Shown in pieces: positions 1 to 10,760 of a stretch of 11,829 bases of DNA; positions within the stretch are counted from its first letter, which is position 1, and every line of letters begins with the position of its first letter. Source of the stretch: Sphingobacteriales bacterium. GTDB taxonomy: Bacteria; Bacteroidota; Bacteroidia; Chitinophagales; Chitinophagaceae. The stretch is from assembly GCA_004294195.1 (NCBI GenBank), contig REAQ01000031.1, forward strand, positions 1 through 11,829, written 5' to 3'. A model generated the notes under the pieces. The model saw only the letters and a list, made by a program, of their open reading frames with translations, ran no database searches and was not told the DNA's origin. A program made the position numbers and the translations under genes.

Positions 1-884
1 GTGTTTTGTGGGGAACATCCTGCAACGAAACACCCAAGCAACCCCTCGGCATCAAGGCCGATGAAGCGCCATGGCAGGGATGGAACAAATACCAGATCAA
101 GCCGGAAGATACACTGGCCCGGTATGGACATGAACTCATTGCCAATACAGCATTGTATTTTGGACCGAAGGGAACCGTGGCGCCCATCACCAATGGTATG
201 AATTGCCAGAACTGTCACCTTGATGGTGGCACCCTGCCCTGGGGTAATAATTATAGCGCCGTGGTGTCAACCTATCCAAAGTTCCGTGCAAGAAGCGGTG
301 GCATTGAAACCATTCCCAAGCGTGTGAATGATTGCTTTGAAAGAAGCCTGAACGGAAAGGCCCTTGATTCCAACAGCAAAGAGATGAAAGCCATTGTTGC
401 CTACCTTCATTGGATCGGTGATGAGATCCCCAAAGGCGCCAAGCCGAAAGGCTCCGGCATCATGGATCTTCCATTGATGAACCGGGCCGCAAGTCCGGAG
501 AAAGGACAGATCGTTTATCAGCAAAAATGTGCAAGTTGCCACGGACCTAACGGTCAGGGACAACCGAATATTGAAGCATACGGCTTTGCCTATCCGCCAT
601 TGTGGGGAGAAAATAGTTACAACGATGGTGCAGGACTTTTCCGCCTATCGAGATTTGCAGGTTATGTAAAAGCCAATATGCCCTTTGGCGCCAACTACAA
701 GAGCACACAGCTTAGTGATGAAGAATCCTGGGACGTAGCGGCATTTGTGAATTCACAACCCAGGCCAAAGAAAGACATCTCACAGGACTGGCCAGACATT
801 TCGAAAAAACCATTTGACCATCCCTTCGGACCATTTTCCGATGGGAAGACGGAAGCGCAACATAAATACGGACCGTGGAGGTAG
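1..884 (+). CDS. tsdA: TsdA-like diheme cytochrome c (thiosulfate dehydrogenase family), 5' partial
   Basis: The reading frame enters from the left edge (first full codon at 3), so the true start is outside the window. Numbering from the TTG at 6, there are two class I heme sites: CQNCH (67-71) and CASCH (175-179). Between them lies RVNDCFERS with Cys110 and a following KEMKAIVAYL stretch, a combination characteristic of TsdA, where this Cys is the axial ligand of heme 1. NMPFG at 224-228 provides Met225 as the likely heme 2 ligand, at the expected spacing after the second CxxCH. TsdA enzymes couple two thiosulfates to tetrathionate, or run the reverse reaction, in the periplasm. Residues GTSC just before the mature region resemble a lipobox (Cys6), so the protein is probably membrane-anchored. 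The soxB gene follows 63 bp downstream, which supports a sulfur role. Family assignment is fairly secure; direction of catalysis and exact substrate are inference. Confidence 0.8.
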   Translation, partial: VLWGTSCNETPKQPLGIKADEAPWQGWNKYQIKPEDTLARYGHELIANTALYFGPKGTVAPITNGMNCQNCHLDGGTLPWGNNYSAVVSTYPKFRARSGGIETIPKRVNDCFERSLNGKALDSNSKEMKAIVAYLHWIGDEIPKGAKPKGSGIMDLPLMNRAASPEKGQIVYQQKCASCHGPNGQGQPNIEAYGFAYPPLWGENSYNDGAGLFRLSRFAGYVKANMPFGANYKSTQLSDEESWDVAAFVNSQPRPKKDISQDWPDISKKPFDHPFGPFSDGKTEAQHKYGPWR

Positions 885-910
885 GTTGAAGGTTGCAGGT
901 TGCAGTTGAA
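885..910 (+). repeat. Degenerate GGTTGCA heptamer tandem repeat
   Basis: Starting with the last base of the preceding stop codon (884), the units read GGTTGAA, GGTTGCA, GGTTGCA and GTTGAA, nearly four copies of a 7-bp unit. It fills the first half of the 63-bp gap between the cytochrome gene and soxB. Short phased repeats of this kind occur between genes in Bacteroidota. No function is visible; the repeat does not form a hairpin with itself. Confidence 0.6.
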
Positions 911-947
911 CCCTACTACGCACTTTGCGACTTAAAAAACGATTTCT

Positions 948-4009: not shown

Positions 4010-6379
4010 ATGAGCAATGAACTTCAAAGACTCCATCATAATTCAAAGAAAAGAATACCCCTGGAACAGTGGGGACCCTATCTGAGTGAAAGACAGTGGG
4101 GAACGGTTCGCGAAGATTACAGCCAGCACGGAGATGCCTGGCGTTACTTTCCCTTTGAGCATGCCCACTGTCGCGCCTATCTCTGGGGCGAAGATGGCAT
4201 CGCGGGCATTTCAGATTTTTTCCAGAACCTCAATTTTTCGGTAGCCTTGTGGAACCACCAGGATCCCATCATCAAAGAGCGGATGTTTGGATTGGTGAAC
4301 TATGAAGGCAACCATGGTGAAGACGTTAAGGAGCTGTATTATTATCTGGATAATACCCCTACACACTTCTACATGGAGTATTTGTATAAATACCCGCAGA
4401 ATCCCTTTCCATATGATCAGCTGCGAGAAGAGAACCGAAAAAAAACCAGGCTGGAGCCGGAGTATGAAATATTGGATACCGATGCCTTTGCAGACAATGC
4501 CTATTTTGATACGCATGTGACGTACGCAAAAAACACCAGTACCGATATCTTCATCAGGATCCGCGTCATCAACCGCGGTAAGGAAGCCGCACCACTAACG
4601 GTGATGCCTACCCTATGGTTTTATAACCGTTGGCAGTATGATGATTCTATGCGCAAGCCATCGATCATCGCCAAAGAAGGGAACTATGTTCGCGCCTTGC
4701 ATGCAAGGCTTGGCTCTTACTATCTATACTATGATGCTCCCGAAGAATCATTTTTCACGGAGAACGAAACCAACCAACATCTTGTCACGGGCAAGGAGCA
4801 ACGCAGTCCGTTCACCAAAGACGCCATCAATAATGTCATTGTGTCCGGGAAGAATCTGCCGCTGATGCGAAAGCGAAAGCACGGCACCAAGTTTTCGCCC
4901 GTGTATCGGCTGAACCTTGCGGCAGGAGAGACCAAAGATATCTATCTAAGACTTGCGGACCATAAGGAGAACGAGCCATTTCCGGCAGAATTTCGTCAAC
5001 TGTTTGAGATCCGTAAGAAAGAGGCCGATGAATATTATAATACCATTTTATCTACTCCTCCGGATTCAGAACTGCGCAACATCCAGCGCCAGGCCCTTGC
5101 CGGCATGCTCTGGAGCAAGCAGTTTTATCATTATGATGTAGAACGATGGATCAATCAGGGCGATGGCATTTCAGACAATGGTCCGCACAAACAATATGGC
5201 CGAAACCATGATTGGAAACACTTGAAAAATCAGGACATTATTTCCATGCCGGACAAATGGGAGTTTCCCTGGTATGCCGCGTGGGATCTGGCCTTTCAGT
5301 GTATTCCGCTGGCACTAGTGGATCCGGCTTTTGCCAAGAACCAGTTGTTGCTGATCATGCGGGAGTGGTATATGAAACCTGATGGGCAGCTGCCGGCTTA
5401 TGAGTGGAACTTCTCAGACGTGAACCCGCCTGTGCAGGCCTGGGCCGTGCTGGAAGTGTACCAGACCGAGAAGAAAATGAAAGGGCAGGGTGATGTGGAT
5501 TTCCTGAAGCGCGCGTTTCACAAACTACTGATCAATTTCACTTGGTGGATAAACCGGAAGGATCCCAATGGCAACAACATGTTTGAAGGCGGATTCCTCG
5601 GCTTGGACAATATCGGTGTATTCAATAGGAGCGCTCCATTGAATGCAGGCATGCATCTGGAGCAGGCGGATGGTACGGCCTGGATGGGAATGTTTGCATT
5701 GAATATGCTGGACATTGCACTGGAGATCGCGATGCACGATCAGAGTTTTGAAGATACGGCTACCAAATTTTTTGAGCAGTTTGTATTGATTGCGGAAGCA
5801 CTCAATCACCACGGCATGTGGAACGAAGAAGATAAATTCTTCTACGATACTTTATCTGTTGCGGGGAGTCCGCCTTTGCAGTTGCGGATCCAATCCATTG
5901 TTGGCCTCACCAGTCTTTTTGCGGTATCTATCATTAAGAAAGAGATGTTTGATAAGTTGAAAGACTTTTCCAAACGCATCACCTGGTTTGAAAATTATCG
6001 AAAGAAAAATGACCTGTTCTGGCCCAACGAAGAGCACAATGAAAAAGACCGCGTGCTGGTGTCCCTGCTTCCCAAAGAGAGACTGGAAGCCTTGCTGCAC
6101 AGGGTGTTGAACGAGGCCGAGTTTTTATCAGACTATGGTATCCGTGCATTGTCGAAATACTACGAGAAGAATCCATACACCGTAGAGATCTCCGGTGTGC
6201 GGCATACCATTGAATATGATCCCGGGGATTCCACCAGTGATTTCTTCGGTGGCAACTCCAATTGGCGCGGACCGGTATGGATTCCGATGAACTACATCAT
6301 CATCCGCAGCATCCGCCGGTACGGAAGATTTTATGGCGAAGCTAACAGAGCGGCTCATCACCATCTTCACCAAGGATGA
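4010..6379 (+). CDS. GH63-like (MGH1-type) glycoside hydrolase, frameshifted near the 3' end
   Basis: 789 aa as read, beginning 19 bp after sqr. There is no signal peptide, so it appears cytoplasmic. The N-terminal half (about 1-340) is the beta-rich domain of large GH63-type proteins, with the conserved ERQWGTVREDYS (27-38) and a stretch around FFQNLNFSVALWNHQDP (70-86). The C-terminal half is an (alpha/alpha)6 barrel, with WEFPWYAAWDLAF (417-429), whose Asp426 sits where GH63 enzymes have the general acid, and NWRGPVWIPMNY (751-762). The family acts on alpha-glucosides or related glycans; the substrate here is unknown. After FYG (774-776) the frame runs into unrelated residues and stops at 6379. 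The family's conserved end, with EYFHGD and the presumed general base, lies in the next frame at 6333-6557. As written the product lacks that base and is probably inactive, unless the shift is a sequence error. Confidence 0.85.
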   Translation: MSNELQRLHHNSKKRIPLEQWGPYLSERQWGTVREDYSQHGDAWRYFPFEHAHCRAYLWGEDGIAGISDFFQNLNFSVALWNHQDPIIKERMFGLVNYEGNHGEDVKELYYYLDNTPTHFYMEYLYKYPQNPFPYDQLREENRKKTRLEPEYEILDTDAFADNAYFDTHVTYAKNTSTDIFIRIRVINRGKEAAPLTVMPTLWFYNRWQYDDSMRKPSIIAKEGNYVRALHARLGSYYLYYDAPEESFFTENETNQHLVTGKEQRSPFTKDAINNVIVSGKNLPLMRKRKHGTKFSPVYRLNLAAGETKDIYLRLADHKENEPFPAEFRQLFEIRKKEADEYYNTILSTPPDSELRNIQRQALAGMLWSKQFYHYDVERWINQGDGISDNGPHKQYGRNHDWKHLKNQDIISMPDKWEFPWYAAWDLAFQCIPLALVDPAFAKNQLLLIMREWYMKPDGQLPAYEWNFSDVNPPVQAWAVLEVYQTEKKMKGQGDVDFLKRAFHKLLINFTWWINRKDPNGNNMFEGGFLGLDNIGVFNRSAPLNAGMHLEQADGTAWMGMFALNMLDIALEIAMHDQSFEDTATKFFEQFVLIAEALNHHGMWNEEDKFFYDTLSVAGSPPLQLRIQSIVGLTSLFAVSIIKKEMFDKLKDFSKRITWFENYRKKNDLFWPNEEHNEKDRVLVSLLPKERLEALLHRVLNEAEFLSDYGIRALSKYYEKNPYTVEISGVRHTIEYDPGDSTSDFFGGNSNWRGPVWIPMNYIIIRSIRRYGRFYGEANRAAHHHLHQG

Positions 6380-6557
6380 AGAAGGCGCCAGGGCTGCGTT
6401 TGGAGAATATAATGAATTCTATCAGCGTCCCGGAAACGAGCATCTGATTATGTTCCATGAATATTTCCATGGAGACAGCGGGAAGGGACTGGGGGCGAAT
6501 CACCAGACGGGGTGGACGGCGTTGATAGCGGATCTCATAGAAAGACTTGCAAAATAA
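6333..6557 (+). pseudogene. Detached C-terminal fragment of the GH63-like hydrolase
   Basis: This 74-residue frame overlaps the end of the preceding frame and continues it by homology. KLTERLITIFTKDEEG, then YNEFYQRPGNEHLIMFHEYFHGDSGKG, then LGANHQTGWTALIADLI are the closing barrel helices and loop of GH63-like proteins. Glu43 in FHEYFHGD corresponds to the likely general base. Family members usually carry about 20 more residues (a Gly-rich, acidic linker) between the YG ending the first frame and the ERL beginning this part; those residues are absent in both frames. That favours a deletion over a single lost base. The ATG at 6333 has no visible ribosome binding site and is probably not a real start. 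The stop is at 6555-6557. Confidence 0.8.
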
Positions 6558-6712
6558 TTAGACAATTAGACAATTTGTGAATGCGGCAATGTAGGAAGGC
6601 GCGCCCTGCGTTGCGGCGCTCCTGCAGTCACTCCGGGTGGTTCTGCGCAGGCCGGCAACGCACGGCCGCGCTTCCTACATTGCCGCATTTCCGCATTGTC
6701 AAATTGCCGCAT
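6557..6712. repeat. Octamer-flanked GC-rich palindromic element
   Basis: A symmetrical 156-bp structure. The left flank on the plus strand is five 8-bp units (6557-6596): ATTAGACA, ATTAGACA, ATTTGTGA, ATGCGGCA, ATGTAGGA. The right flank on the minus strand (6712 down to 6673) is again five: ATGCGGCA, ATTTGACA, ATGCGGAA, ATGCGGCA, ATGTAGGA. The core (6597-6672) is 57 of 76 G+C. The arms 6580-6598 and 6671-6689 are perfect 19-bp inverted repeats. Pairing continues imperfectly inward, for example TGCGTTGC at 6607-6614 against 6655-6662, leaving a loop around 6625-6645. It can fold into a long hairpin on either strand and may act as a bidirectional terminator between the converging genes. It resembles a dispersed palindromic (REP- or MITE-like) repeat, but only one copy is visible here. 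No transposase is present. Confidence 0.8.
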
Positions 6713-9712
6713 TAAACCTTGTGATAATATTGTTGAAGAGATCAATCCACCAATAAGTACCAGTGCAAGCGGCGAGATCAGCGGATTGCTGTTCAGAGCA
6801 ATCGGAGTTAATCCGCCGATGGCGGTGAGTGAGGTAAGTACGATGGGTAGAAAACGAACCTCGCCAGCCTGCTTGATGGCATCGTTCAATTCCATTCCCT
6901 GCTCGCGCAGCTGGTTGGTGAAATCAACCAGAAGGATCGAGTTCTTTACTTCCACGCCGGCCAATGCAATGAAACCGATGATGGCCACAAAGGACAGCGG
7001 ATTGCCGGTAAGCCACAGCATCAATACGCCACCAATGATACCCAATGGAATCACAGAGAGCACAATGAGCATGCTCTTGAAGGTTTTGAATTCCAGCAGC
7101 AAAACCATGATGAAGAGGAATACCGTAGCGATCACCACCGTTCCAAAACTTCCGCCAAAGGCTTCTTGCCTGGATTCCACTTCACCCGCCAACTGGATAC
7201 TGTATCCATCGGGAAGATTCAAACTGGCCTGCTTCGCCATGAAATTATTGATGATGGTTTCTGCCAACACGCCATCCCGGTTGAATGCCGTCACCAATAC
7301 ATAACGCTCTTTGTTCAGGTGCTTGATGGTAGTAGGCGATGTCTCAAACTGGATATCTGCTACCTGCTTCAAAGGAATGGGTGTTCCAGTTGCGTTGTTG
7401 ACATAGATATTGTCGAACGAATTCAGGGTCGCGAATTTTTCCTTCGGCGCATTCATCACAATATCATAATCGTCTCCTTTTTCATTCGTGTACTGTCCGA
7501 GTTCAACACCACTAACGGCAAGGCGTACTGTTTTATCGATGTCGGATGTTAAGATGCCAAGGCTGCGCGACTTATCCGTGTTGATGTTCAGCTTGATGTC
7601 GCTTTTCAATAGATCCACATCGTTCCTCACATAAATCGCGCCATCAATAGTATTTAGCAATTGTTCAGCTTTGCCGGCCAGGGTCTTTAAAGTATCGAGA
7701 TCATCGCCCATGATGCGGATGGCGATGGGTGCTTCGATGGGTGGTCCTTGTTCAAAGTCTTTCACTTCGATCTTGGCGCCGGCCATTTGCCGGAACTGTT
7801 CACGCAGCTTGAGGATCAGCTTTTGTTTTTCTTTTGCGTTAAAATCTTTTTCCATCTGCACATAGATCTGCGCGAAGTCTGGTTTTTCATTTTCAGGAAT
7901 CTCGTTGTAATATATTCTTGGATTGCCCTTACCTACATTGGTGGTGAAATAGGTGATGGATGATTCCGCTCCCAGCACCTTCTCAACCTTCCTCGCCATC
8001 AGGTTGGTGGTTTCAATATTGCTTTGGAGCGGCATATTGATGTTCACCATGAACTGTGGTTTTTCAGAAGTGGGGAAGATGCGGAAACCGATGGCTTTGA
8101 ACAAGCCAAGGGATGCTACAAACAAGCCAAGTGAAATCACAAGGGTAGTCACCGGACGTGCCAGCGCTTTATCCAACAGTTTAGTATAAGAACCGCTGAT
8201 GAGTTTTTTCAATCCACGCATGAAGATGTTTCCTTCGGGACTGTGATCGGCTTTCAACAACCTGCTGGCCATGAAGGGAACGATGGTGAGGGAAACCAGC
8301 ATCGACGCAAATACCGAGGTGATCACCGCCAGTGGCAGACTGCGGATGAATTCTCCGGAACCTTCCGGAAGAAAAACCAGGGGTAGGAACGCAATGATCA
8401 AGGTTGCGGTACAACCAACCACGGCGAGTGTGATCTGCTTGGTTGCCTCAATGGCCGCGTAGGTTCTCGAATGCCCTTCGCGAAGCCATCGTTCAATATT
8501 TTCTACGACCACAATACTATCATCCACCAGCAATCCTAAGGCAACTACAAAGCCTACAATACTCAACTGGTTTAAGGAAAAGCCGAGGAAATTCAATGCA
8601 ACAATTCCGAGGCCCAAAGAAAGTGGAATAGCCACCATCACCACAATGGAGGCGCGACCGCCCAGGGGAAGAAGCGTGATCATCACGAGGCCAATGGCGA
8701 TGAGGAAATCGATCCCCAAGCCCGTGAGGCGCCTGTCCACATTATCTGCCTGGTCAAAATTTTTGATGAGATCAATATTGGGCGGAAGTGTTTTTTCAAA
8801 GCGGCTGATGATGGGGAGATATGCTTTCTGTGTTTTAGCGATGTTCTCGCCTTCTTTCTGCGCCGCAGTTACTAAAACGGCGCGATGGCCATTGATGCGT
8901 ACGATGTGTTTCTGTTCTTCATCAGCTAAGTTTACGCTGGCAATGTCTTTCAAGCGGGTGATGTTGCCATTGGCGGCATACACCACGGTGTTACCGATCT
9001 CTTCAATGTTTTTATATTTTCCGCTGGTTTTAATATTGAAGGTTTTCTCACCGGCGCGGATGCTGCCCGCAGGAATGTTCGCTGCTTCGCTTTGAATATT
9101 GCCGATGACATAGTTCATTGGAATATTCAGCTTGGCAATTTTATCCAGCTGCAGGTCAATCCGCACGGCCTGCTCTTGCGCACCCCAATACTCGATCTTT
9201 TTCAGGGATTTCAGTTTCTCGAGTTGCTCTTTCAGTTCTTTTGCATAGAACTTCATTTTTTCATTGGAGGCATTCTCGGAGACCAATGCGATCTGCAATA
9301 CGTTTACATCAGTGGGTGTGATCTTCTTGATGTCGATCTTGTAGATGTCTTGCGGAAGGCTCGAGCGTAAGCTATTCACTTCACGCACCAGTTCCTGGTA
9401 TTTGGCATCTACATCGGAACTATACTTGTAATCTACTTCAAGCACGGCGATGCCATCGTGGATATTGGTTTTGATTTCCTTGATGTCATCGAGCTCAGCA
9501 ATTTTTTTCTCGAGGGGTTTCACCACGAGTTCTTCCATGTCTTGTGGACTGGTACCGGGATATACAACAACGATGGGGAACTGGGGTGGATTGAGTTCGG
9601 GATCTTCGGACCGGGGCATATTCATCACTGTAGTGACAGACACCACCATGATCATCAGGAACAGCACCAGGGTCAGTTGGTAGTTTTTTACAAAAAACGA
9701 TGTGAGTTTCAT
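6566..9712 (-). CDS. RND efflux permease (AcrB/HAE1-like) with a repeat-encoded C-terminus
   Basis: 1048 aa from the ATG at 9712, 7 bp after the upstream partner's stop; the frame stays open to 9751 but that would overlap the partner. This is the inner-membrane proton-driven pump of a tripartite exporter. TM1 is at about 11-30; the first periplasmic loop starts with MPRSEDPELNPPQFPIVVVYPG. A central TM block spans about 333-480, a second large periplasmic loop about 545-850, and TM8-12 follow. Proton-relay residues are present: Asp397-Asp398 in GLLVDDSIVVVENIER and Lys923 in GVEVKNSILLVDF. These fit drug or organic-compound pumps (HAE1) rather than the heavy-metal type. After LIGGLISSTILS (986-997), where homologs continue with about RxVTPVLYKL and a short tail, this protein reads QGL and then 48 residues encoded by the palindromic element. 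The end of TM12 is thus replaced, and function is uncertain. Confidence 0.9.
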   Translation of the reverse strand: MKLTSFFVKNYQLTLVLFLMIMVVSVTTVMNMPRSEDPELNPPQFPIVVVYPGTSPQDMEELVVKPLEKKIAELDDIKEIKTNIHDGIAVLEVDYKYSSDVDAKYQELVREVNSLRSSLPQDIYKIDIKKITPTDVNVLQIALVSENASNEKMKFYAKELKEQLEKLKSLKKIEYWGAQEQAVRIDLQLDKIAKLNIPMNYVIGNIQSEAANIPAGSIRAGEKTFNIKTSGKYKNIEEIGNTVVYAANGNITRLKDIASVNLADEEQKHIVRINGHRAVLVTAAQKEGENIAKTQKAYLPIISRFEKTLPPNIDLIKNFDQADNVDRRLTGLGIDFLIAIGLVMITLLPLGGRASIVVMVAIPLSLGLGIVALNFLGFSLNQLSIVGFVVALGLLVDDSIVVVENIERWLREGHSRTYAAIEATKQITLAVVGCTATLIIAFLPLVFLPEGSGEFIRSLPLAVITSVFASMLVSLTIVPFMASRLLKADHSPEGNIFMRGLKKLISGSYTKLLDKALARPVTTLVISLGLFVASLGLFKAIGFRIFPTSEKPQFMVNINMPLQSNIETTNLMARKVEKVLGAESSITYFTTNVGKGNPRIYYNEIPENEKPDFAQIYVQMEKDFNAKEKQKLILKLREQFRQMAGAKIEVKDFEQGPPIEAPIAIRIMGDDLDTLKTLAGKAEQLLNTIDGAIYVRNDVDLLKSDIKLNINTDKSRSLGILTSDIDKTVRLAVSGVELGQYTNEKGDDYDIVMNAPKEKFATLNSFDNIYVNNATGTPIPLKQVADIQFETSPTTIKHLNKERYVLVTAFNRDGVLAETIINNFMAKQASLNLPDGYSIQLAGEVESRQEAFGGSFGTVVIATVFLFIMVLLLEFKTFKSMLIVLSVIPLGIIGGVLMLWLTGNPLSFVAIIGFIALAGVEVKNSILLVDFTNQLREQGMELNDAIKQAGEVRFLPIVLTSLTAIGGLTPIALNSNPLISPLALVLIGGLISSTILSQGLMRQFDNAEMRQCRKRGRALPACAEPPGVTAGAPQRRARLPTLPHSQIV

Positions 9713-9719
9713 GGTGCGT

Positions 9720-10760
9720 TTATTTGATGGCGGTGATGATGGATTGATCATTCAGGTAAGGGGATCCGGAAGAAACGATGTAAGCATAGCCTTCCAGTCC
9801 GGAGAGCACCTGAACCGTGTTGTTGTTGATCTGACCGATCAGCACTTCCACTTTCTTGACGGATTTCCCATCATTGCTGGCGAAGACGAATCCCGTTTTA
9901 CCATTCGCTTCCAGTAGCGATTCATAAGGGATGGTGTAGCCGTTTTGTTTGATTACACTTTTAATGGATGCTTTGCCGAACATTCCGGTTGCGGGTTGTT
10001 CCTTACCGAAGCTCACTTGCAATTCAATCGGGAAAGTTCCGTCTGCAGGATCAGCGGCGAGTCCTTTTCTGGACACAACGGCGGGGAAGGATTTTCCAGG
10101 GAAAGCTTCAAATGAAATGGTTGCGCTATTGCCTTTATCAATCAGGGCCCATTCTTTATCTGCAACACCGGTAGAGAGAATCCAGGCGGAGGACTTAGAT
10201 ACACCACCCAACAAAAGCACAGCTGAACCGGGTTCGCTGAGCTCGCCCTCGTTTTTGAGTTTGCGGATCACAAATCCGTCCTGCGTGGCATAGATTTTTG
10301 AGTACTGTTGATTGAACGAAGCCTGCGTGAGATTCTGTCGGGCGCTCTCCAATCCGGTTTTTGCATTCTGCAGTTGCTCAAGCGTAGCAACGCTATCGTT
10401 ATAGAGATTTAGCACACGTTGGTAGTCACGCTCGGCTTTTTGGAGGCCGAGTTGTACCTGTTGTACTTGTGCGGAGATCTCCGTCGATTTTGTGGTGGCG
10501 AGGAGCTGACCTCGTTTTACTTTATCGCCCTCAGAAACGAGGATGCGGTCTATGACGCCGCCGGTTTTGAAACTCAGGCGCATTTCATCCTGTGTGGAGA
10601 GATAACCGGTGACGCGAATGAGGTTGTCTGCCGCTTCCTCTTTGATGGAAATGAGCTTAACGGGAATCGTGTCCTTGGCGGCGATCTTTTTTTCTTCGGC
10701 TCTACTGTTGCAGGCATAAGCGGCAACAATGATCAGGAGCAGTGATAGTACGTTTCGCAT
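9720..10760 (-). CDS. RND efflux membrane fusion protein (HlyD/AcrA family lipoprotein)
   Basis: 346 aa, the periplasmic adaptor linking the RND pump to the outer-membrane channel. The N-terminus has a hydrophobic segment (3-14) and lipobox AYAC with Cys17, so it is anchored by lipid. A beta-barrel/lipoyl half-motif follows, with FKTGGVIDRILVSEGDKVKRGQLLA (64-88), the typical half-lipoyl segment, then an alpha-helical hairpin of coiled-coil type (about 93-150). The second lipoyl half is IYATQDGFVIRKLKNEGELSEPGSAVLLL (156-184). A beta-barrel domain follows (about 190-270), then the membrane-proximal end. The start is the ATG at 10758-10760, giving a complete signal peptide. It lies 22 bp after the TolC-type gene and 7 bp before the permease, so the three form one operon. 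It is a general adaptor; substrate specificity cannot be inferred. Confidence 0.92.
   Translation of the reverse strand: MRNVLSLLLIIVAAYACNSRAEEKKIAAKDTIPVKLISIKEEAADNLIRVTGYLSTQDEMRLSFKTGGVIDRILVSEGDKVKRGQLLATTKSTEISAQVQQVQLGLQKAERDYQRVLNLYNDSVATLEQLQNAKTGLESARQNLTQASFNQQYSKIYATQDGFVIRKLKNEGELSEPGSAVLLLGGVSKSSAWILSTGVADKEWALIDKGNSATISFEAFPGKSFPAVVSRKGLAADPADGTFPIELQVSFGKEQPATGMFGKASIKSVIKQNGYTIPYESLLEANGKTGFVFASNDGKSVKKVEVLIGQINNNTVQVLSGLEGYAYIVSSGSPYLNDQSIITAIK

What the first reader, a model, noticed from the sequence alone, without database searches (positions are those of the whole stretch)
6557..6712. Symmetrical element: five octamers, GC-rich palindrome, five inverted octamers
Both flanks are phased in exact 8-bp units starting with AT (consensus roughly AT-K-N-G-R-C-A), five on each side, oriented inward. 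The two innermost units are identical on both sides (ATGCGGCA, ATGTAGGA). The core is 75% G+C in a much less GC-rich neighbourhood and is itself an imperfect inverted repeat. The phased, mirror-symmetric design is more ordered than a plain terminator hairpin. It suggests a dispersed, possibly mobilised or RNA-structured repeat family; the octamer flanks could grow or shrink by slippage. That it is a family is inference, since one copy is seen.
Basis: seen in the sequence. Interest (0 to 1): 0.7.

Follow-up and report, generated by a model that had tools for sequence, protein, structure and literature searches.

The report
Dispersed palindrome with phase-locked octamer arms
The element is one of about thirty copies of a non-coding DNA palindrome scattered between genes of this bacterium, framed by four-times-repeated eight-letter units that sit tight against gene ends, and similar framing arms turn up in many Bacteroidota without a known maker or job.

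Summary
The unit is 158 bp (6556-6713): two inward-facing 36-bp arms, each four AATnnGnn octamers plus AATG, around an 86-bp, 71% G+C imperfect palindrome. The genome (75% complete) holds 30 loci with at least half the core. The 18 full copies aligned are all exactly 158 bp, so octamers do not grow or shrink in them. Over 144 octamers, positions 1 and 6 never vary and 3 varies once, while 4, 5, 7 and 8 vary far more than the core. The core was found in none of 24 congeners searched. The arm design is widespread but patchy: 103 of 396 order genomes; 79 of 80 listed named hits are Bacteroidota. Arms lie flush against gene ends with fixed polarity (outer edge 112, inner edge 8, of 219 arms). Ribosomal-protein gene junctions show arms in some species and none in relatives. 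A REP/RAYT origin is not supported; no T-tract terminator was found; arm pairing shows no clear covariation. Best reading: a non-autonomous dispersed hairpin whose arms are read in an 8-nt register by an unidentified factor.

The parts
6556..6591 (+). left arm: four AATnnGnn octamers (AATTAGAC AATTAGAC AATTTGTG AATGCGGC) + AATG; its first two bases complete the stop codon of the upstream gene
6592..6677 (.). 86-bp GC-rich imperfect palindromic core (70.9% G+C), shared with the other core-bearing copies of the genome
6678..6713 (-). right arm, inverted: AATGCGGC AATTTGAC AATGCGGA AATGCGGC + AATG read on the minus strand
6714..6723 (.). AAACCTTGTG, outer flank shared with one other copy (L028, contig C18), whose right half is nearly identical to this one
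6724..9751 (-). RND efflux pump gene whose conserved C-terminal stretch, present in 10 of 10 related genes read, is replaced by sequence read from the element and its flank
4010..6557 (+). glycoside hydrolase gene (MGH1-like/GH63); its reading frame shifts near 6330-6376 and its stop codon overlaps the left arm by 2 bp

Best explanation
It is one copy of a non-autonomous, dispersed, non-coding hairpin element. Shown: the 158-bp architecture, the copy number, the phase-locked conservation of the arms, the flush and polar placement against gene ends, and presence or absence of arms at orthologous gene junctions. Inferred: the two arms are arrays of four recognition sites that an unidentified trans-acting DNA- or RNA-binding factor reads in an 8-nt register (A1 A2 T3 G6). 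That factor, or a machine that uses it, copies the element into intergenic gaps. Once there the element sits mostly in the 3' flank of genes as a long hairpin. The GC-rich core is a species-specific passenger or addition, because arms occur without it in this genome and around unrelated spacers in other genera.
For: 30 loci with at least half the core: 21 with both halves, 4 left only, 5 right only, one of these cut by a contig end. All 18 copies aligned (of the 21) are 158 bp with no gap. Octamer positions 1 and 6 are invariant in 144 of 144, position 3 in 143 of 144; identity at positions 4, 5, 7, 8 is about 64% against 93% in the core. Left and right arms are not more alike or better paired within a copy than between copies, so the constraint reads as sequence recognition rather than pairing. 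Outer arm edges lie within 10 bp of a called gene boundary in 30 of 45 own arms against 6.7 expected under uniform placement, maximum 14 in 2000 draws; also 50 of 77 in named loci (expected 10.6) and 15 of 23 in genus g23 (expected 3.5). Polarity: outer edge flush in 112, inner edge in 8, over 219 arms in four sets. Own rplF-rplR gap: an arm directly after the stop; none of the 29 relatives' gaps printed shows an AATnnGnn arm, read by eye. The region has no match in 39 relatives searched, 24 of them congeners, and a 22-base core string none in the GTDB contig scan (records near the own genome may be left out there).
Against: No target-site duplication was seen; the base outside the arm is T or C in 62 of 70 arms. 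Only one enzyme family (Y1) was tested as mobiliser. The window copy and L028 share 10 bp of flank beyond the arm, which suggests recombination or copying with flank rather than precise excision. The octamer class is absent from 39 of 41 genomes of the own genus and from 293 of 396 order genomes at this stringency. The genome is only 75% complete. No experiment bears on binding or movement. Flushness may partly follow from gaps that were short before insertion.
Confidence: 0.42

Rival explanations
1. RNA-level element: after transcription the paired arms form a long hairpin at gene ends that ends or protects transcripts from both sides (a bidirectional terminator or BIME-like 3' stabiliser); spread is secondary.
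For: Very stable folds, -82 to -103 kcal/mol in 18 copies. Of 18 full copies 9 lie between convergent genes, 8 tandem, 1 divergent by a simple ORF caller. Flush after stop codons. Pairing of the drawn helix is 86.9% of cells against 31 to 43% when slid by 1 to 3 columns, and further pair types are slightly high (36 against 32.8, 43 of 500 shuffles as high).
Against: No T-tract terminator on either strand. No covariation excess: 10 pairs with changes on both sides against 10.8 in shuffles, 86.9% of cells paired against 86.9%; the slid control is biased because the helix was drawn from one of the copies. Many arms have no partner within 220 bp (own 20 of 65, named 63 of 111). One of two paired arms tested inside the S10 operon folds only weakly (z -1.8; the other -3.8).
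Confidence: 0.25
2. In-place generation: 7-8 bp units multiply by slippage at gene ends and are turned into inverted pairs by template switching; no mobile element is involved.
For: Arrays of period 7 with unrelated unit sequences are enriched as well (period 7, 51 against 2; period 8, 78 against 0; period 7, 23 against 3.8). Different unit classes stand right after the stop codon of the same glycoside hydrolase gene in own species, G015 and G021. Native leaders of rpmC resemble the outer octamer, by eye. L024 has the same 14-bp promoter-like flank on both sides, inverted.
Against: The same AATnnGnn class and, in this species, the same core occur at many unrelated loci. Unit number is constant in the full copies aligned. 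Left and right arms are not significantly more alike within a locus than between loci.
Confidence: 0.22
3. A REP/BIME family moved by a RAYT (Y1, HUH) transposase.
For: Size, palindrome, intergenic 3' location and inverted pairing resemble BIMEs (recalled); PMC6006769 (passages and section 25 read) reports a Bacteroidetes subclass 2.6 with atypical flanking structures.
Against: Own Y1 fragment has the DHVH motif given there for IS200-type subclass 1.1. None of 20 Y1 loci is flanked by arms, and the 16 in which my motif search recognised a Y1 frame end in an NQ- or EQ-type motif; they were taken from the best-scoring hits, so class 2 proteins are under-sampled. Octamer-rich G351, G315 and G068 are not among the 290 Y1-positive genomes. 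A GTAG tag is present in only 10 of 18 left and 9 of 18 right ends.
Confidence: 0.06

Closest known systems
TAACTGA heptamer direct repeats of Beggiatoaceae, Cyanobacteria and five Bacteroidetes (MacGregor 2015, PMC4679880; abstract, passages and sections 9 and 16 read)
   Same: Short fixed-length-unit arrays, mostly intergenic, within a few bases of start codons, also inside ribosomal-protein operons, patchy across species, no transfer mechanism evident; candidate readers proposed there are S1, cold-shock and Csr proteins.
   Different: Unit is one exact 7-mer in mostly direct orientation (one inverted case). Here units are degenerate 8-mers (other arrays have 7-mers), often in inward-facing pairs, flush with stop codons, and in this species with a palindromic core.
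REP/BIME with RAYT (GTAG and CGTC families; PMC3733652 and PMC6006769, passages read)
   Same: Dispersed intergenic palindromes, often in inverted pairs.
   Different: No conserved GTAG tag; the arms are phased direct repeats and not themselves palindromes; no associated RAYT found.
BrickBuilt MITE of Porphyromonas gingivalis (PMC4596501, abstract and outline read)
   Same: Bacteroidota, intergenic, inverted ends plus tandem repeats, 19 copies.
   Different: 23-nt tandem repeat, 49 to 591 nt from coding sequences, no octamer phase.
Correia elements of Neisseria (recalled, no call)
   Same: About 150 bp, inverted ends, dispersed, near genes.
   Different: TA target duplications and a conserved terminal repeat that is not phased.

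Membership tests
REP/BIME moved by RAYT | cognate RAYT (Y1) gene flanked by the repeat | tested here: not met
   0 of 20 fetched Y1 loci flanked by arms, class 2 proteins under-sampled; own genome has one IS200-like Y1 fragment and is 75% complete
REP/BIME moved by RAYT | conserved GTAG or CGTC tag beside a short palindrome | tested here: not met
   GTAG in 10 of 18 left and 9 of 18 right ends; CGTC not scored
REP/BIME moved by RAYT | intergenic, 3'-flank placement, many copies | tested here: met
   32 own arms flush with gene 3' ends against 2 with 5' ends, of 70 arms; 30 core loci
MITE | terminal inverted repeats with conserved length | tested here: met
   18 of 18 copies aligned are 158 bp, inward arms at both ends
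MITE | target-site duplication | tested here: inconclusive
   flanks show no duplication; neighbouring base T 35, C 27, G 5, A 3 of 70 arms; no strain-level empty site available
MITE | parent transposon with the same ends | not tested
   no systematic search for a transposase bracketed by arms was run
TAACTGA-type heptamer repeats | unit TAACTGA in direct array upstream of start codons | tested here: not met
   unit is AATnnGnn; flush own arms mostly follow stop codons
intrinsic terminator | GC stem followed by a T-tract | tested here: not met
   0 found in 6400-6900 on either strand by a consensus scan
known Rfam RNA | match above gathering score | tested here: not met
   0 matches in the window
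BrickBuilt MITE | 23-nt tandem unit | tested here: not met
   unit 8 bp, four per arm

The most novel reading that the evidence does not exclude
A Bacteroidota-wide machine lays down four-unit arrays of 7 or 8 nt at gene boundaries as inward-facing inverted pairs. The register and the polarity are fixed by the machine (for example by a short nucleic-acid template that is reused, or by a modular protein that reads one unit per domain), while the unit sequence is exchangeable, so different species carry different unit classes at the same spots.
Probability: 0.2. Interest if true: 0.88.

Novelty: new variant of a known kind. Interest (0 to 1): 0.6.

Why it matters
Intergenic DNA of many Bacteroidota is framed here and there by phase-locked, polar repeat arms that begin at the stop or start codon, in some species even inside ribosomal-protein operons. 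I found no mobiliser, reader or function. The flush, polar placement and the invariant AAT--G-- register make concrete, testable predictions: a binding protein, an effect on transcripts, or a copying machine. If one is found, a sizeable class of repeats in this phylum would be explained at once.

Tried and rejected
Slippage growth of octamers in the core-bearing copies: rejected, 18 of 18 aligned copies of equal length. Compensatory pairing of the arms: no clear signal (within-locus similarity p 0.59 to 0.78 for 19 own pairs, taken from 25 rows; p 0.10 for 24 own, 0.29 for 7 G415 and 0.17 for 15 named pairs; pairing p 0.34; structure counts). RAYT: see rivals. Phage or plasmid origin: no blastn match in phages or plasmids; a 22-base core string absent from viral contigs; 9 viral contigs hold an arm-like array, read only around the arm. 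An empty site for the window copy itself: no pump gene was found in the flanks of the 22 hydrolase loci fetched from relatives, so there is no direct orthologous junction. TA target duplication: not consistent. Literature: four strings of such arrays occur in no paper of the library; other searches. Subscription papers are mostly not held, so absence from print is not shown. A test of other candidate enzyme families across genomes was not run (all 12 genome searches used). A regular expression for the second, heptamer-bearing module was too strict (1 hit); the module was read by eye.

Full report
Anatomy. The window element spans 6556-6713, 158 bp. The left arm is AATTAGAC AATTAGAC AATTTGTG AATGCGGC AATG; the right arm, read on the minus strand, is AATGCGGC AATTTGAC AATGCGGA AATGCGGC AATG. 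The 86-bp core between them has 70.9% G+C against about 50% in the flanks and folds on itself: the strand gives -88 kcal/mol, z -9.4, 0 of 200 shuffles as good. The innermost 'octamer' is better read as AATG plus the start of the core.

A family in one genome. A BLAST of the region against the own genome (G000, 1.96 Mb, 75% complete) gives 69 matches, among them self-palindromic ones. In the own stretches fetched (36 around hits and one around a Y1 gene; six more) I count 25 left core halves and 26 right halves. The union is 30 loci: 21 with both halves, 4 with the left only, 5 with the right only, one of these at a contig end. Some copies have part of the core replaced by a second module, GACGCTTCGCGAGGCA or a variant followed by 7-mers of the type GGCATTG, read by eye in about eight of them. 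Arms without the core also occur, for example in L039, L040 and L045. For the alignment I used 18 of the 21 two-sided copies, leaving out one with a short arm (second copy in L020), one with a core deletion (L028) and one with the second module (L032).

Phase-locked arms. All 18 copies are 158 bp with no gap. Over 144 octamers position 1 is A 144, position 2 A 130 and G 14, position 3 T 143, position 6 G 144, while positions 4, 5, 7 and 8 are mixed. Mean pairwise identity is 93% in the core and about 64% at the mixed positions. So what is conserved is AAT--G-- every 8 bp. The left and right arms of one copy are not significantly more alike, and do not pair better, than arms of different copies. 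The hairpin shows no excess of compensatory change: 10 pairs with changes on both sides against 10.8 in shuffles; only the number of further pair types is slightly high (36 against 32.8, 43 of 500 shuffles as high). Constraint on the arms is therefore on the motif and register and is not explained by pairing.

Placement. With a simple ORF caller, 30 of 45 own arms lying in called gaps have their outer edge within 10 bp of a gene boundary, against 6.7 expected for uniform placement in the same gaps. Named loci give 50 of 77 against 10.6, genus g23 15 of 23 against 3.5. The outer edge is flush with a gene end in 34 of 70 own, 53 of 102 named, 15 of 26 g23 and 10 of 21 g66 arms; the inner edge in 4, 2, 1 and 1. 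In the own genome nearly all flush ends are gene 3' ends (32 against 2). Of the 18 full copies 9 lie between convergent, 8 between tandem and 1 between divergent genes (in several rows, the window's among them, called ORFs run into the element). Two cautions: the ORF caller is crude, above all for start codons, and part of the flushness could follow from insertion into gaps that were short to begin with.

The window copy. Its left arm completes the stop codon of the hydrolase gene. On the other side the pump gene loses the C-terminal stretch that 10 of 10 related genes read keep (identity to the query 56 to 85%), and its frame runs on through the element. The right half and 10 bp of outer flank are shared with the copy in L028, so this copy may have arisen by recombination with that one.

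Relatives. The 156-bp query matches none of 39 relatives, 24 of them congeners, and a 22-base core string is absent from the GTDB contig collection. The octamer arm pattern rings in 2 of 41 genomes of the genus, the own one with 78 hits and G015 with 2, and in 103 of 396 genomes sampled from the order. The reversed control pattern rings in 26 of 396 by my count of the rows, a few strongly (G213, G246, G282, G046), so other phased families exist. In genus g23 many arms form inward pairs (32 of 42 arms in the loci fetched, which were chosen for pairs in part) around spacers of 20 to 110 bp with no obvious common core by eye.

Orthologous junctions. In the S10 operon of genus g23, 30 rplP loci were fetched (of 38 genomes with a match, 61 searched) and 20 were printed in detail; the other ten were seen only in part. 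G415 and G165 carry octamer arms between rplP and rpmC in gaps of 125 and 104 bp. Sixteen of the other 17 printed gaps are 15 to 22 bp and one (G470) is 28 bp, without arms; the 17-bp gap of G461 (AATTTCAAATTGACACA) resembles the end of an arm and could be a scar or a seed. Between rpsC and rplP, G415, G165, G461 and, in degenerate form, G470 carry arms; three others (G479, G438, G447) keep a single octamer-like stretch and G199 an irregular one. Between rpmC and rpsQ the same four carry 7-bp units instead, read by eye. A tree from these genes (21 of the 30 loci; G470 dropped for missing data) scatters the carriers among non-carriers, and one deep node has support of only 0.30, so gain and loss cannot be told apart. 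In the own genus the rplF-rplR gap of the own genome holds an arm directly after the stop codon, in front of a small hairpin (CTGGCAGNATCAG) that I see in 26 of 29 relatives; none of those 29 gaps shows an AATnnGnn arm.

Other unit classes. In own DNA (268 kb, chosen mostly around octamer loci) four-unit arrays of period 7 number 51 against 2 in a shuffle, and period 6 21 against 3. In 70 loci of congeners chosen by homology period 7 gives 23 against 3.8, period 6 23 against 8.2, period 8 only 2 against 0.8, so in congeners the octamer type is rare and the heptamer type is the enriched one. Of nine congener hydrolase loci given to the script three could be read to the end of the gene: right after its stop G015 has four AGGTTGC units, G021 GTTAGTA units with an inverted partner downstream, and G003 (L089) none.

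Mechanism. I favour a non-autonomous dispersed hairpin with arms that are recognition arrays for an unidentified factor; the recognition step and the movement are inferred. The rivals are a transcript-level role and in-place generation. A RAYT origin is unlikely: 290 of 396 order genomes have a Y1 hit, while octamer-rich G351, G315 and G068 have none, and none of 20 Y1 loci fetched is flanked by arms. Weaker-scoring class 2 proteins were not examined one by one.

Prior art. The nearest published case found is the TAACTGA heptamer array (PMC4679880), which shares the intergenic, start-codon-adjacent placement and presence in ribosomal-protein operons. It differs in unit, orientation and the absence of paired arms and core. 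I found no paper describing AATnnGnn arms in the searches listed; the library lacks most subscription journals.

Noticed in passing
window 882-911: A second phased array, 7-bp units AGGTTGA/AGGTTGC, begins at the stop codon of the cytochrome c gene.
   Followed up: partly
window about 6330-6376: The glycoside hydrolase reading frame shifts near its end and is shorter there than in the relative G015; assembly error or real lesion cannot be told.
   Followed up: partly
L024 (G000:C177): The one divergent copy has the same 14-bp promoter-like flank (AAAGATAGGAAGAC) on both outer sides, inverted, as if one flank had been copied to the other.
   Followed up: no
L136, L143, L144 (genus g23): A palindromic module containing GTCCGAAGGACTC or a close variant sits next to octamer arms, comparable to the GACGCTTCGCGAGGCA module of the own genome.
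   Followed up: no
G213, G246, G282 (genus g120): The reversed control pattern rings many times (47, 71 and 23 hits), so these genomes carry another phased octamer family.
   Followed up: no
L394-L402 (viral contigs): Nine IMG/VR contigs contain arm-like octamer arrays, some longer than four units.
   Followed up: partly
L384 (congener G017), after the pump gene: A different octamer class, GGCAAKGA units with an inverted partner, follows the stop codon of the pump homologue.
   Followed up: no
L041 and relatives, rplF-rplR gap: A small hairpin CTGGCAGNATCAG lies upstream of rplR in the own genome and in 26 of 29 relatives by eye, possibly a ribosomal-protein leader.
   Followed up: no
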